DNA of 37,060 nt from an uncultured Methylococcaceae bacterium (GTDB lineage Bacteria; Pseudomonadota; Gammaproteobacteria; Methylococcales; Methylococcaceae), in NCBI GenBank assembly GCA_903911305.1, contig CAIWDB010000357.1:1-37060 (forward strand). The letters run 5' to 3'. Under the pieces are notes generated by a model. That model was not told where the DNA came from, did no database searches, and saw only the letters and a list, made by a program, of their open reading frames with translations. Below, one piece after another: positions 2,666-29,828 of the stretch (positions are counted from its first letter, which is position 1; each line of letters begins with the position of its first letter). Both the position numbers and the translations under genes were made by a program.

Positions 2666-3667
2666 TCAACTCCTCGAAACCGGGAATGCCAACACCTGTT
2701 CGATGTGGCTGCAACCCGTCATCAACATCAGTAGCCGATCCAAACCGATTGCCATACCGGAACAGTCAGGCAGGCCCTTAGCCAAAGCGCCAAGCAATCG
2801 TTGGTCTTTAGGCGGTAATGGCAACCCCAATTGGCGGCGAACTACCAAATCGCCATCAAATCGCATGTCCTGTTCGACAGGGTCGGCCAACTCATGGAAT
2901 CCATTGCCCAATTCCAAACCATCTAAGAATATTTCGACTCGTTCCACCACCGCCTCGCCCCCTGGCTTTTTGCGCGCCAAGGAGGGCAGGCAAGCGGGGT
3001 AGTCATAAACGAAATATACTCGGCCCAGTTCCAATTGAGGTTGGACAATATGGCTGAACAACAAATCGAGCCAAATCATCCTATCCTCACCACAGATTGC
3101 GGTAGCCTCTGACAAATCACACCGTCTTGCACATTCTGCAAACTCGCTCCAATCTGCATGAATAGGATCGACTCCGACCCATTGCTCAAACAGTTTTCGG
3201 TAAGGAACTCGCTTAGACGAGCCAAGATCGCGCTTTCCGTCAAACAAAACGACGAATAAGGCTTCAATTTCGTCCATAAGCTGATCCAGCCCAAACCCTA
3301 TCCTGTACCACTCTAGCAAGGTAAACTCTGGATTGTGGTGGCGACCAGACTCTTCGTTGCGGAATGCCTTGCATATCTGATAGATGGAGCCTGAACCCGA
3401 TGCCAGAAGGCGTTTCATGGCAAATTCCGGGGAGGTTTGCAGATAATAATCGACTCCCACGGTTTGCCCCGGCCGCCGATACTGGGAGACAAAGGGATAT
3501 AGATGGGGATCGGTTCCCGCTGACTGGCCCAGCAGAGGGGTTTCGACTTCCAATACGCCGCGTTCATCAAAGAAGCGGCGTATCCGTTTGAGAGTCAACG
3601 CCCTAGCGCGCAGGGCGGTTTGATCGCAGCTTGGTCGCCAACTGGCTTCTGGGCTACTCTTTGACAC
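2666..3667 (-). CDS. epmA: EF-P--(R)-beta-lysine ligase EpmA (PoxA/GenX)
   Basis: A class II lysyl-tRNA-synthetase-like enzyme without an anticodon-binding domain; it attaches (R)-beta-lysine to Lys34 of EF-P. At 333 residues it matches the family (about 325). Motifs follow the expected order: [19 protein letters not shown], the class II motif 2 region [20 protein letters not shown], and the motif 3 region [18 protein letters not shown] near the C-terminus. The gene overlaps the 3' end of efp by 14 bases, so enzyme and substrate are translationally coupled. It lies opposite epmB, which makes the beta-lysine. The C-terminus (AFPVSRS) is normal, and nothing appears missing. Confidence 0.96.
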
Positions 3668-4223
3668 GCGAAATGTATTCGCCTGTGCGGGTGTCGACCT
3701 TGATCAATTCATCCGTCTGCACAAACAAGGGTACACGCACAACAGCACCCGTTTCCAAGGTGGCCGGCTTGCCGCCACCGCCCGATGTGTCACCGCGAAC
3801 GCCCGGGTCAGTTTCCACTATTTTTAACACGACAGAATTGGGCGGGGTGACTGACAAGGGCGAACCATTGTACAAGGTGATTATGCAGACATCCTGTTCC
3901 TTCAGCCATTTTTTTGCGTCGCCAACGACGTTGATGTCTGCGGTATACTGTTCAAAAGATTCGGGCTGCATGAAATGCCACTCGACTCCGTCGTTATACA
4001 GGTATTGCATATCCATATCGGCAACGTCGGCGGGTTCCAATGTTTCGTTTTGCTTAAAGGTACGCTCGATAACCCGCCCGGTTTTCAAGTTGCGAAGTTT
4101 GACACGGTTGAATGCCTGCCCCTTGCCTGGCTTGACAAACTCGTTTTCAATCATGACGGCAGGGTCGCCGTCTAGCATGACCTTCAACCCGTTTTTGAAA
4201 TCGCTGGTGCTAAAATCTGCCAT
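3654..4223 (-). CDS. efp: Elongation factor P
   Basis: A 189-residue translation factor that relieves ribosome stalling at polyproline stretches. It has the KOW-like N-terminal domain and two OB folds of normal length. The modified lysine is Lys34 in [14 protein letters not shown], which is the context recognised by EpmA rather than the arginine used by the EarP system. The C-terminal signature runs [21 protein letters not shown] good ribosome site (AGAGGAT on the minus strand) precedes the ATG. The gene is divergent from epmB and upstream of epmA, so the whole modification pathway sits within 2.7 kb. Confidence 0.97.
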
Positions 4224-26311: not shown

Positions 26312-27264
26312 TCAATTGTTTTTTGCTGAACCCTTTCCAATAATTGCTATGATGAAATGATAACGCTTATCTGCTAAATCCTTTTCATTTTCCCATACAA
26401 TATGGTTATATTGTTTTGTGTCGAAGTGGACGCAACTTACTTCTTTCTTGTGAACACTCCAAAACACCGGAATGCCTAAGCCTAAAGCATAGCCCGCCTC
26501 GAAATAGACGCCCTGTGATTGCTTGGTCACATCAGGACCAAGAATCGAGAGTTTTTAATTTCGTTCATGATCTTCAAGTCGATTCGCTCGTTATGCGGTT
26601 CCATATCTGTTCGGCATGGATTGAATCCTGCTGTCTTGATGGCTGGATAAAAGCCATCTTCCCAAGCGGATTTAAGTTTCGGCGAAAAAGACATTGCCAC
26701 AAATGCCTGATTGCTGATGACGGAAGCACGAGCATGTTCCTCAAGATACTCCCATCCTTTTGCAGTGATCATTCCTTTAATTTGTCCTCCTGTAAGACGA
26801 AGAGCGTTCATACCTTCTTCTGGACTCAGTTTTAGTAAATCACGTTGAAGGAGTGATTGGAGGAGATATTCAAGTTCGTCTAAACCTGTTGCCCAAACAA
26901 GCGGATAATCGTGTTCAACATTAATACTGGCACGATGCCCAGGATATTCCGTTCTACTTTCAAAGACATTCATCAGTAGTAATTGTTTTTCAAGCACCCG
27001 ATAGTTTGGAAAACTCCTTTCTATATCTTCCAAACTGTTTTCGGTAATTTTTGGAATTACTACAGCAGATTCCGTTTGTTTCCTAATCCAAGCAGACAGT
27101 TTATAACTAATTTTTAGTTTCTCAGCCTTTTTGGTGGCAAGCTTAGTAATTTTAAACTCTCCACAACATTTACAAATAACTGAAAAAGCGTTTCGATGAT
27201 CTTTCTCTTCAACGACTTGTTTATCTAAACTACATATTGGGCAGCTTTGTTGATTATTAGACAT
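26312..27264 (-). pseudogene. Frameshifted zinc-ribbon / nucleoside 2-deoxyribosyltransferase-like protein
   Basis: Two frames make one protein. The first (27264-26527) starts MSNNQQSCPICSLDKQVVEE and has a CxxC...CxxC zinc ribbon (residues 8-36). A helical middle follows, then AFVAMSFSPKLKSAWEDGFY and IDLKIMNEIKNSRFLVL, where it stops. The second continues DVTKQSQGVYFEAGYALGLG and IPVFWSVHKKEV to 26312. The last strand and the glutamate in GVYFEAGYALG are hallmarks of the nucleoside 2-deoxyribosyltransferase-like fold. The break lies near 26533-26540, and one missing base (for instance in a GCT codon giving FLVADVT) would restore the frame. It could be a recent mutation or an assembly error. 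Confidence 0.8.
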
Positions 27265-27307
27265 TTAATGACCCATAGATTGCCATCCGTGGACGCTGGA
27301 TTGGCTT

Positions 27308-27392
27308 ACCACATAGTTGTGGTTCGGGCTTCGCCCCACACTCCTCCGTGCGTCCAAATCAGCTCCCGGCTGATTTGTCGGCATCCTTGCCG
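27308..27392. repeat. Cluster of four short hairpins
   Basis: ACCACA/TGTGGT (27308-27323), GGGC/GCCC (27326-27336), AAATCAGC/GCTGATTT (27356-27376) and CGGCA/TGCCG (27379-27392) follow one another with loops of 3-5 bases. Confidence 0.75.
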
Positions 27393-27463
27393 AAATGACA
27401 GCCTTTTGCCAATTTGTATAGCTTGACATGCGCCTGTACGTGGGTGCGATGGAATTTGATTTA

Positions 27464-27555
27464 CAACCCGAAGGGTTGCCAGACATTAGCCGGGGATTGA
27501 GCGTAGCGATATCCCCGGACAACGCAAAATTATAGCCACGAACCCGAAGGGTTCG
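27464..27555 (+). repeat. Three-hairpin element, copy 1
   Basis: H1 is CAACCC-GAA-GGGTTG (27464-27478). An 11-base spacer ends CATTAG. H2 has the 8-bp stem CCGGGGAT/ATCCCCGG around a 13-base loop (27490-27518). After a 21-base spacer, H3 is GAACCC-GAA-GGGTTC (27540-27554), extended by one C-G pair. Confidence 0.85.
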
Positions 27556-27645
27556 CAGAGTATGTCCTAGGAGTAAAGACGTTATGCTAAATGGGTTCGA
27601 CATCGGTTGTCGGTTGCTAATCTTGTATTACAAAGGAAGGGCTAC

Positions 27646-27736
27646 GACCCCTCCGGGGTCCATTCTTCATTTTCATAGTTACCGGGGGTGTCGCTTCGCT
27701 TAACCCCCGGCTAATGGCTAGAACCCTTTCGGGTTC
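27646..27736 (-). repeat. Three-hairpin element, copy 2 (inverted)
   Basis: Read on the minus strand: H1 GAACCC-GAAA-GGGTTC (27736-27721); a 10-base spacer ending CATTAG; H2 with stem CCGGGGGT/ACCCCCGG (27710-27682, 24 of 29 bases equal to copy 1); a 21-base spacer; and H3 GACCCC-GGA-GGGGTC (27660-27646). Each hairpin differs from copy 1 by a compensated base pair. Confidence 0.85.
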
Positions 27737-27791: not shown

Positions 27792-29828
27792 CTACTTAAA
27801 CGGCCACAGTGATTTTTTTGCCGGTTGGTCTTCTTGGGCTTGCTCGGTATATTGCTCAGACCCGCCTTCTGAAACTTCCTCCAGCCCCTCTTCAGATTCC
27901 TCTTCGGTTTCAGACGCATCCTCCTCCAAAAACTCGACGGGGTTCTCCGGCATTTCCTCAAAACTGGCTGGATCGTCGTAAGAGAGCGATTCACCCGTGC
28001 CGCGCACGTCGAATTCGACTTTCCAACGCTCGCCGTTGCCGGTGGCGACCGCTTCCAGTTGCAAAGTACCCACCTCGGTCACTTGGGCGGCAAGATGGAC
28101 CGGTACGACTTCACCGGAACGACGATTTTCTGCGGACAGTAGCACTTCGATTTCATTGAGTTCTTGCAACTCGCCCTCATCCCAGTAATCCAAGCGAGCG
28201 CCGACCACGTCATCGCGACGCACATTGGAACCAAAGAAGCGGAACCGCACAGGTTCACCCACCACTAGCCCAAATTCGTCGTGAGGCAATTCCGCACCCG
28301 TGCCCTCTTCCATGCCGAATGGGGCAATGCACAGGGCTTCCAGTGGCGGAGGGAATCCCGGCACCGATGGCATTGCGCTTTCCACTCCCACATAATAAGC
28401 CGCTGCCGTGCCTCCACGGATGCGCACCCCCTTGCCTTTGCGCACATAACCATAATAAGCCGCGCCTCTGGCCACAGCCAAATCTAGGTCTGCGCCTGCC
28501 AATAAGCGAGCTTCGGGAGCGCTTTCTTCTGCAAGCCAATGATTAAGGACTTCCAGCAAACGATGGGCAAGCGACTCTGATTTGAACACGCCACCATTGA
28601 GCAATAACGCGGTGGGATGAAGAAACGACGCATCAGAAGGAGGGCTGAAACCGGCAAGTTCCTCGGTTGCATTGATCTGACGGGCAAGGAAGGCGGCCAA
28701 ATGGCAAGTAATCCTTGCATCTTTGGCATAGGGCAAACCCAAGGTGGTCAAACCGGCTCGCGCCTGTGCCGCCGGACGGTCGGAGGATTTGACCTTGGGG
28801 AAGAAGCCTTCCACCAAGGTGCGGCTGACTTCTTCACGAGTCAGCGAGGTTCTCAGGGTTCCGCCAATCAGCGAAGAACCACGGCTAGGCACTACGACAA
28901 CAACTTCTTCTGCGTCATCATCAACGAGTAAGGTTTCCTTGGCGTCGCGGCAACTGTGCATCAAGGCATGAAGTTGCCAAGGTTCCAGCCGTTTGCCTTC
29001 CTTTTCCAGTTTCATTTTCAGCACATAGGCCAAAGCCAAGTCCATGTTGTCGCCACCTAACAAGATATGGTCGCCGATGGCTATGCGATTAAGCTGTAAA
29101 TTGCCTTCTTCCTCGGTGACGGCGATCAGTGACAGGTCAGTGGTGCCACCGCCAACATCGACGACTAAGATCACATCGCCTGGCTTGGCTTGCTTGCGCC
29201 AACCGCCTTCACTGGTTTGAATCCAGCTATACAAGGCGGCTTGCGGCTCTTCAAGCAGGATGGCTTGGCGTAGCCCTAAGGAATGGGCCGCTTCCACCGT
29301 CAGTTCACGGGCCGCAGGGTCAAATGAAGCCGGAACCGTGATGACCAGTTCTTGCTCACTCAAGGGTTCATCGGGGAATTTCTCATTCCACGCATCGCGC
29401 ATATGCTTCAGGTAATCGGCTGATGCCTGAAACGGCGAGATGCGAGGCACTTCTTCGGGCGATTGCACCGGAAGAATGGCCGAACGACAATCCACACCGC
29501 TGTGGCACAACCAACTCTTCGCGCTGGACACCAGCCGGATGGGGGTTTTGCCACCCATTTGACGGGCGATTTCACCCACGATAGTGTCTGGGCTGTCATC
29601 CCAAGGCAAGGCTATTTCACCTTCGGCCAATTCGTCTTCATGGGCTTGATAGACAAAAGATGGCAATTGTTTCTTTTCACCCAACACACCGGGGCTGGTC
29701 AATTGGGGAATGGGCAATACTTCCAATGGGGCATGTTCACCGTCACACTGGCCCAATTCCAAGTAGGATACGACGCTGTTAGTGGTTCCAAGGTCAATGC
29801 CAACCGAAAAACGGGGATTCTCGCTCAT
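27792..29828 (-). CDS. DnaK-like Hsp70-family protein
   Basis: A 678-residue Hsp70-like ATPase. Phosphate loop 1 is FSVGIDLGTTNSVVSYLE, loop 2 is ILVVDVGGGTTDLSLIAV, and the adenosine-side motif is LLLNGGVFKSESL. The substrate-binding part is divergent (about 500-610). The C-terminus is a very acidic tail (Glu/Ser-rich, about 620-665) ending AKKSLWPFK. GGTGGAG immediately precedes the ATG, which overlaps the DUF2760 gene by four bases (ATGA). Pairing with DUF2760 marks it as part of a non-canonical chaperone module rather than dnaK itself. No DnaJ or GrpE gene is nearby. Confidence 0.92.
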   Translation of the reverse strand: MSENPRFSVGIDLGTTNSVVSYLELGQCDGEHAPLEVLPIPQLTSPGVLGEKKQLPSFVYQAHEDELAEGEIALPWDDSPDTIVGEIARQMGGKTPIRLVSSAKSWLCHSGVDCRSAILPVQSPEEVPRISPFQASADYLKHMRDAWNEKFPDEPLSEQELVITVPASFDPAARELTVEAAHSLGLRQAILLEEPQAALYSWIQTSEGGWRKQAKPGDVILVVDVGGGTTDLSLIAVTEEEGNLQLNRIAIGDHILLGGDNMDLALAYVLKMKLEKEGKRLEPWQLHALMHSCRDAKETLLVDDDAEEVVVVVPSRGSSLIGGTLRTSLTREEVSRTLVEGFFPKVKSSDRPAAQARAGLTTLGLPYAKDARITCHLAAFLARQINATEELAGFSPPSDASFLHPTALLLNGGVFKSESLAHRLLEVLNHWLAEESAPEARLLAGADLDLAVARGAAYYGYVRKGKGVRIRGGTAAAYYVGVESAMPSVPGFPPPLEALCIAPFGMEEGTGAELPHDEFGLVVGEPVRFRFFGSNVRRDDVVGARLDYWDEGELQELNEIEVLLSAENRRSGEVVPVHLAAQVTEVGTLQLEAVATGNGERWKVEFDVRGTGESLSYDDPASFEEMPENPVEFLEEDASETEEESEEGLEEVSEGGSEQYTEQAQEDQPAKKSLWPFK

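What the first reader, a model, noticed from the sequence alone, without database searches (positions are those of the whole stretch)
27464..27736. Inverted pair of three-hairpin elements with compensatory base changes
Seen: two elements of 92 and 91 bases, in opposite orientation and 90 bases apart, share the order H1, spacer ending CATTAG, H2 (29 bases), 21-base spacer, H3 (15 bases). H2 copies match at 24 of 29 positions. Each hairpin carries one compensated pair: H1 C-G versus G-C at the base, H2 A-T versus G-C, H3 A-T versus C-G. Covariation in all three stems suggests the fold, not the bases, is maintained. Inference: a mobile, structured DNA or RNA element of the REP/MITE kind.
Basis: seen in the sequence. 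Interest (0 to 1): 0.76.

Follow-up and report, generated by a model that had tools for sequence, protein, structure and literature searches.

The report
Three-hairpin ends of an orphan transposase
The paired triple hairpins are the two ends of a small jumping-gene family whose enzyme was thought to have no matching DNA ends; the copy here has lost the enzyme gene and is probably an old leftover, but the family links an orphan enzyme to its DNA.

Summary
The two elements are the left and right ends of one ~273-bp unit: 22 half-copies in the genome, folds kept by compensatory change over 115 distinct copies. One genome copy, on contig C34, carries a gene between two such ends: a 147-aa HUH/Y1 transposase. 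Its Y motif (YISNQEEHH) fits TnpAY1 'subclass 1.2', which Quentin et al. 2018 describe as having no REP and no IS properties. Relatives in MAGs labelled to several phyla have inward-facing ends of this kind in 25 of 30 loci; a model-free test finds inverted ends around 17 of 21 subclass-1.2 genes and 0 of 5 other IS200-like genes. So 'mobile REP/MITE kind' is right in outline, but the enzyme is not a RAYT by NCBIfam's cut-off. Most likely: a non-autonomous relative of a subclass-1.2 transposon, processed as folded ssDNA (inferred). Many dispersed copies also ride inside a Tn5/IS50-like miniature element; the window copy does not. New variant of a known kind.

The parts
27464..27478 (+). H1 of the B-type end (stem with GAA loop)
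   Evidence: a B-type end also lies right of tnpA on C34
27486..27489 (+). TTAG tetranucleotide at the 5' foot of H2 (within CATTAG 27484-27489)
   Evidence: TTAG in 105 and GTAG in 6 of 111 distinct halves (whose search required [TG]TAG, so other feet could not appear)
27490..27518 (+). H2, 29-nt imperfect hairpin, GTA loop in a GC-GNA-GC tip
27540..27554 (+). H3 of the B-type end
27556..27645 (.). centre of the unit, 90 nt, no gene recognised; the tnpA-bearing relative on contig C34 holds its gene between the ends
27646..27660 (-). H3 of the A-type end
27682..27710 (-). H2 of the A-type end, GAA loop
27711..27714 (-). TTAG foot of the A-type end (within CATTAG 27711-27716)
27721..27736 (-). 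H1 of the A-type end
27464..27736 (.). whole non-autonomous unit, in the gap between an hsp70-like ORF (27792-29828, minus) and ORF 26527-27264 (minus)
   Evidence: the orthologous site keeps a whole unit in G005, only the A half in G001 and G002, none in G003, G004, G006 (read by eye)

Best explanation
The window holds a non-autonomous (gene-less) member of a transposon family whose complete form is: three-hairpin end, tnpA gene, three-hairpin end in inverted orientation. tnpA encodes a single-domain HUH/tyrosine transposase of TnpAY1 subclass 1.2. Shown: the ends, their inverted order, the gene between them, gene-less relatives with the same ends in the same genomes, and conserved folds. Inferred: when the region is single-stranded (replication fork), each end folds as H1-TTAG-H2-H3; TnpA binds the H2 hairpin with its TTAG foot, as TnpA-REP does with GTAG plus hairpin, nicks nearby, and strand transfer moves the unit; gene-less units are moved in trans. 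The window copy is old and probably inactive. In several genomes the gene-less unit also sits inside a Tn5/IS50-like miniature element, which probably spread many of the copies.
For: Gene between two ends in the own genome. Inward-facing halves around 25 of 30 relatives' tnpA (22 of 30 at 24 bits or more on both sides), commonly 27 nt before the start and 12 nt after the stop. Model-free inverted-end test: 17 of 21 against 0 of 5 controls. Five further subclass-1.2 genes from three other genomes of the same class, and one from a Persicobacter plasmid at 36.5% identity, have hairpins of other sequence in much the same order (read by eye). Co-occurrence: all 5 of 61 relatives with a close TnpA have the element, against 4 of 56 without (P = 2e-5, not corrected for kinship). 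Compensatory change. Loops mostly GNA on the TTAG strand: H1 73, H2 87, H3 56 of 111.
Against: No precise empty site and no excision or insertion event was seen; in the one comparison made for a tnpA copy (G049 C27 against its genus) the orthologous sites were too diverged and the copy lay among other repeats. Many gene-less copies have a Tn5-like TIR outside, so their spread need not be TnpA's work; by eye the G049 C27 tnpA copy too lies between degenerate TIR-like stretches further out. G001, G002, G003, G006 and G313 have elements without a close TnpA. Four of 21 genes (L092, L093, L100, L214) show no inverted ends, and L220 passes only narrowly (33 against a shuffle maximum of 30). The tree does not resolve the subclass-1.2 rows as one clade. 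Loops AAC and AGC, not GNA, are frequent in H1 and occur in H3 (seen in Methylobacter loci). L222 reads CAAG rather than TTAG at one end. In L214 the [DN]HuH pattern found no HUH motif.
Confidence: 0.68

Rival explanations
1. A conventional REP/BIME or REPIN system driven by a RAYT (TnpA-REP).
For: Tetranucleotide TTAG/GTAG at the foot of an imperfect hairpin, inverted pairs, association with a Y1 gene; a RAYT by NCBIfam's cut-off is present in the genome (C510, 97.6 bits, cut-off 80).
Against: The gene between the ends fails the RAYT cut-off and has the Y---Q--HH motif instead of Y---NP; in the tree it falls with the IS200-like proteins, not with the two Y---NP proteins of the genome (long branches); three hairpins per end; 22 halves (67 in G005) rather than hundreds.
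Confidence: 0.12
2. Passive passenger: the three-hairpin unit was captured by a Tn5/IS50-like miniature element and spread only by that element's DDE transposase.
For: 24 of 36 G005 halves, 7 of 18 own halves, 6 of 11 G049 halves have the 19-bp TIR just outside (chance 3 of 5000 shuffled windows); the TIR borders a Tn5-type transposase gene in G001 and G005; target duplications of about 9 bp read by eye at two sites.
Against: The window copy and C34 have no TIR just outside, and only 1 of 22 halves in ten tnpA loci has one (the window looked at was about 20-90 nt before TTAG); tnpA with its ends occurs in MAGs labelled to several phyla; it does not explain the conserved inverted ends around the gene.
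Confidence: 0.17
3. An RNA-level element: terminator or 3' mRNA stabiliser downstream of the hsp70-like gene.
For: Lies 55 nt beyond the hsp70-like stop; 4 terminator-like sites against 0.9 expected; strong RNA fold, z = -8.0.
Against: No Rfam match at gathering score in the window; copies occur at many sites and bracket tnpA genes on both sides; inverted ends favour DNA-level processing (inference). A secondary effect on mRNA remains possible.
Confidence: 0.05

Closest known systems
TnpAY1 subclass 1.2 (Quentin et al. 2018, PMC6006769)
   Same: Protein length (147 vs median 148), DH[VI]H, Y---Q--HH motif, few gene copies per genome (1 in the own genome, up to 3 matches in the relatives with a close TnpA).
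   Different: They report no REP and generally no IS200 end structures, and mostly Cyanobacteria/Bacteroidetes; here the genes have inverted three-hairpin ends and gene-less relatives, and occur in Methylococcales and in MAGs labelled Verrucomicrobia and others.
REPtron / REPIN with TnpA-REP (RAYT)
   Same: Tetranucleotide-plus-hairpin units in inverted pairs around a Y1 gene; dispersed pairs without the gene.
   Different: Other protein class; TTAG more than GTAG; three hairpins per end; fewer copies.
IS200/IS605 (IS608, ISDra2)
   Same: Closest named family and solved structures of the protein (PF01797, NF033573; 2xm3 and ISHp608 2a6m among six weak hits; that 2xm3 is ISDra2 is recalled); hairpin near each end.
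   Different: IS200-type ends are not inverted copies of each other (recalled; 0 of 5 IS200-like controls); here they are.
PATEs (Haloquadratum, PMC3119063)
   Same: Gene-less relatives of a Y1 transposon with palindromes near the ends.
   Different: PATEs are described as devoid of inverted terminal repeats (passages read); these have them.
TIRtron/TIRYT (Di Nocera et al. 2013, PMC3733652)
   Same: Y1 gene between inverted repeats, some self-complementary, with dispersed relatives (abstract and one section read).
   Different: Its 26 proteins were placed in subclasses 2.1, 2.2 and 2.5 by Quentin et al., none in 1.2.

Membership tests
TnpAY1 subclass 1.2 | Y motif Y---Q--HH with DH[VI]H and ~148 aa | tested here: met
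   own protein DHVH, YISNQEEHH, 147 aa; exact motif in 24 of 30 relatives as translated; the other six (L087, L091, L092, L096, L098, L099) are truncated, frame-broken or altered there
TnpAY1 subclass 1.2 | separate branch from subclass 1.1 | tested here: inconclusive
   the six IS200-like rows form one starred group (95/95); the 1.2 rows stay outside it but are not resolved as one clade
TnpAY1 subclass 1.2 | no REP or IS end structures (published description, not a definition by sequence) | tested here: not met
   end structures present
RAYT / REPtron | RAYT protein (NF047646 cut-off, Y---NP) | tested here: not met
   23.3 bits, cut-off 80; motif YISNQ
RAYT / REPtron | GT[AG]G at the foot of a hairpin | tested here: inconclusive
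   TTAG in 105, GTAG in 6 of 111 halves (search required [TG]TAG)
RAYT / REPtron | inverted units flanking the gene | tested here: met
   25 of 30
IS200/IS605 subclass 1.1 | NF033573 cut-off | tested here: met
   69.3 bits, cut-off 55
IS200/IS605 subclass 1.1 | ends that are not inverted repeats (recalled) | tested here: not met
IS200/IS605 subclass 1.1 | insertion 3' of a short target without duplication (recalled) | tested here: inconclusive
   no clean empty site
PATE | no terminal inverted repeats | tested here: not met
   arms 81% complementary in the window
MITE of a DDE transposon | TIR of a DDE transposon and target duplication of its own | tested here: not met
   no Tn5-like TIR outside either window end; where present, TIR and target duplication belong to an outer element; no other DDE family was searched for
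Rfam family | score at gathering threshold | tested here: not met
   0 matches in the window
subclass 1.2 transposon | TnpA cleaves and transfers these ends | not testable with these tools
   needs biochemistry

The most novel reading that the evidence does not exclude
Subclass 1.2 is not an orphan, domesticated branch of IS200 enzymes but a transposon type of its own: a Y1 HUH transposase with symmetric, inverted, triple-hairpin ends (H1-[T/G]TAG-H2-H3). Its two ends therefore present their substrate on opposite strands, unlike IS608, so it must move by a route different from IS608 single-strand peel-and-paste, and it may be the missing link between IS200 elements and REPtrons.
Probability: 0.45. 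Interest if true: 0.8.

Novelty: new variant of a known kind. Interest (0 to 1): 0.62.

Why it matters
A class of HUH transposases was described without any cognate DNA. Naming its ends makes the class testable with short oligonucleotides, and gives an intermediate between IS200/IS605 elements (no inverted ends) and RAYT/REP systems (inverted REPs). It also shows nested mobility: an HUH element carried inside a Tn5-like miniature element.

Tried and rejected
Rejected: an attC/integron reading of the outer CGTTATACACAAGT motif (considered, not tested by a search for an integrase); the motif is part of a 19-bp terminal repeat beside a Tn5-type transposase. Rejected: a plain RAYT. Rejected: a known RNA family. 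Led nowhere: viral contigs (no relative); Tn5-type transposase in the own genome (PF14706, none); a transposase between the two C15 TIRs (ORFs, none recognised by eye); clean empty sites; literature on GNA loops (listing only). The first regular expression was wrong and found nothing, corrected. AlphaFold and fold searches were not used.

Dropped or chosen rows: L102 and L103 (fragments of 23 and 21 aa) were left out of the 30 loci. One search used 13 of those 30 loci, picked by hand for variety, plus own, L214, L215 and L220-L224; controls L138 and L141 were dropped because no frame was found, and the control L140 is doubtful (an 88-aa frame without the motifs). One search used only halves with at least 60 nt outside, in the loci held.

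Full report
The observation. Every stated feature is in the sequence: elements at 27464-27555 (+) and 27646-27736 (-), 92 and 91 nt, 90 nt apart, CATTAG, H2 of 29 nt with 24 of 29 identical, 21-nt spacer, H3 of 15 nt, and one compensated pair in each hairpin. Folding is far beyond shuffles and the arms are 81% complementary. The window is the whole of contig C357 of a 5.84-Mb genome in 661 contigs.

Copies. The 273-bp stretch recurs in the genome at about 69-91% identity; a covariance model of 17 halves finds 22 halves on 14 contigs. Two kinds of end exist: A (H1 about GAACCCCGAAGGGGTTC) and B (H1 about GCAACCCGGAGGGTTGC), in inverted order within a unit; so the two 'elements' are two ends of one unit. 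Four other copies also resemble each other in the centre. Across 115 distinct halves from own, same-family and Methylobacter loci the pairs are kept in 97.8% of 2747 cells and 15 of 24 pairs change on both sides; slid controls reach 63.7% and 5 (alignment fitted to the structure, related sequences).

The enzyme. Four Y1_Tnp matches lie in the genome, one with a stop inside. The one on C34 (147 aa) stands between an A end and a B end, with an extra degenerate half before it. NCBIfam places it as IS200/IS605 (69.3 bits, cut-off 55), not RAYT (23.3, cut-off 80); six solved sequences match weakly, E 5e-5 to 0.004, among them ISHp608 transposase. Its DHVH and YISNQEEHH motifs fit subclass 1.2 of Quentin et al. 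(abstract, section 12, the first part of section 15, and passages read; [quoted passage not shown]

Relatives. One scan of named genomes gave 32 loci: Methylococcaceae, Methylobacter, Crenothrix, and MAGs labelled Verrucomicrobia, Prosthecobacter, Flavobacteriales, Balneolia, Geobacter and others (MAG labels may be wrong). Of 30 with usable gene coordinates, 25 have inward-facing halves on both sides within 310 nt (22 with at least 24 bits on both sides). The start-side gap is 27 nt in 10 loci and the stop-side gap 12 nt in 11. The exact Y---Q--HH motif is in 24 of 30 as translated. In the more distant loci the hairpin sequences differ but the order H1, TTAG or GTAG, H2, H3 can often be read, except that H2 is weak or absent in most Flavobacteriales rows (by eye).

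A test that uses no model aligned 250 nt before each gene with the reverse complement of 250 nt after it. Of 21 subclass-1.2 genes, 17 beat all 200 shuffles (L220 narrowly); L092, L093, L100 and L214 did not. Of 5 other IS200-like genes none did (one of them, L140, is a doubtful frame). Both Y---NP genes of the genome did. The 21 include five genes from three genomes drawn from 369 of the class and a Persicobacter plasmid gene, 36.5% identical; their flanks read by eye as hairpin, TAG-like foot, hairpin, hairpin, with different letters; L222 has CAAG at one end and the divergent L224 shows the order only in part. Bernardetia (L214) has hairpins and GTAG in an inverted pair upstream of the gene only.

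Co-occurrence. Among 61 relatives the close TnpA is in 5 (G000, G005, G025, G027, G049; best E 9e-50 or lower, the best match of every other genome E 3.7e-7 or higher) and the element in 9, all 5 included; G001, G002, G003 and G006 have 3 to 10 halves without it (stricter filters above 40 genomes). In the class sample the model matches G000, G160 and G313 at E 1e-6; G160 has a TnpA, G313 none at E 1e-20; G177 and G247 have TnpA but no model match. Unit length differs by genome (about 280 nt in G000 and G005, 221 in G025, 232 in G049; examples), as expected if gene-less units arose more than once (inference).

Nesting. Outside many copies stands CTCATCGTTATACACAAGT. Its core occurs at 26 places in the own genome (up to 2 mismatches), some as inverted pairs with other contents, and it stands next to a Tn5-type transposase start in G001 and G005. 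It resembles the Tn5 outside end (recalled letters, 15 of 19; the five papers listed of 25 did not print that sequence). Target duplications of about 9 bp in GTTCCCAAGC...GCTTGGGAAC-like palindromes were read by eye at two sites. It borders 7 of 18 own halves, 24 of 36 in G005, 6 of 11 in G001/G002/G003/G006, 2 of 7 in G025, 6 of 11 in G049, but 1 of 22 in ten tnpA loci; shuffled windows 3 of 5000. The G049 C27 tnpA copy seems to lie between degenerate TIR-like stretches further out (by eye). So spread has two possible drivers; the window copy lacks the TIR.

The window copy. It lies 55 nt beyond the stop of an hsp70-like gene. The same place holds a full unit in G005, only the A half in G001 and G002, and none in G003, G004 and G006: an old insertion, decayed in some species.

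Mechanism. TnpA-REP acts on one strand only, on a hairpin with a GTAG foot; E. coli's enzyme tolerates no change of GTAG while two other REPtrons are looser (PMC8266576, abstract and first part of the discussion read). By analogy TnpA here probably binds TTAG-H2 on single-stranded DNA. The GNA loops are on the TTAG strand; that such loops make very stable DNA minihairpins is recalled. Because the ends are inverted, the substrate strand differs between the two ends; how one enzyme handles that is open.

Novelty. Searches for RAYT/BIME, TnpAY1/REPtron, PATE, Methylobacter with repeat terms, and HUH/Y1 terms listed 20 of 58, 4 of 4, 6 of 6, 12 of 111 and 9 of 9 papers; none of the listed titles or abstract starts describes ends for subclass 1.2. 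Only open-licence papers are held.

Noticed in passing
window 27258-27407: A second dispersed repeat (GTCATTTCGGC type), about 76-90% identical to places on many contigs of the own genome and its genus; the same kind of sequence fills some Tn5-like TIR pairs.
   Followed up: partly
L216 (G001 C42) and L217 (G005 C389): Tn5/IS50-type transposase gene beginning beside CTCATCGTTATACACAAGT: the probable parent of a miniature element inserted into GTTCCCAAGC palindromes.
   Followed up: partly
L015 1998-2492 and L022 1447-1923: Two Y1 genes of the own genome with Y---NP motifs (the first passes the RAYT cut-off; the second judged by motif only) and inverted flanks of their own (29 of 32 and 126 of 163 identical).
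   Followed up: no
L014 about 1986-2100: A fragment resembling ruvB next to the B end of the tnpA copy, duplicating part of the ruvB-like ORF at 2678-3706 (by eye).
   Followed up: no
G005 C356 and C137 (L179, L180): Two tnpA copies in one genome, one intact and one broken in frame, with an extra degenerate half or pair of halves before the gene.
   Followed up: partly
paper PMC4853749: The hupL MITE of Thiomargarita (19-bp inverted repeat, 10-bp direct repeat, no parent found) may belong to the same Tn5-like kind; letters not compared (passages read).
   Followed up: no
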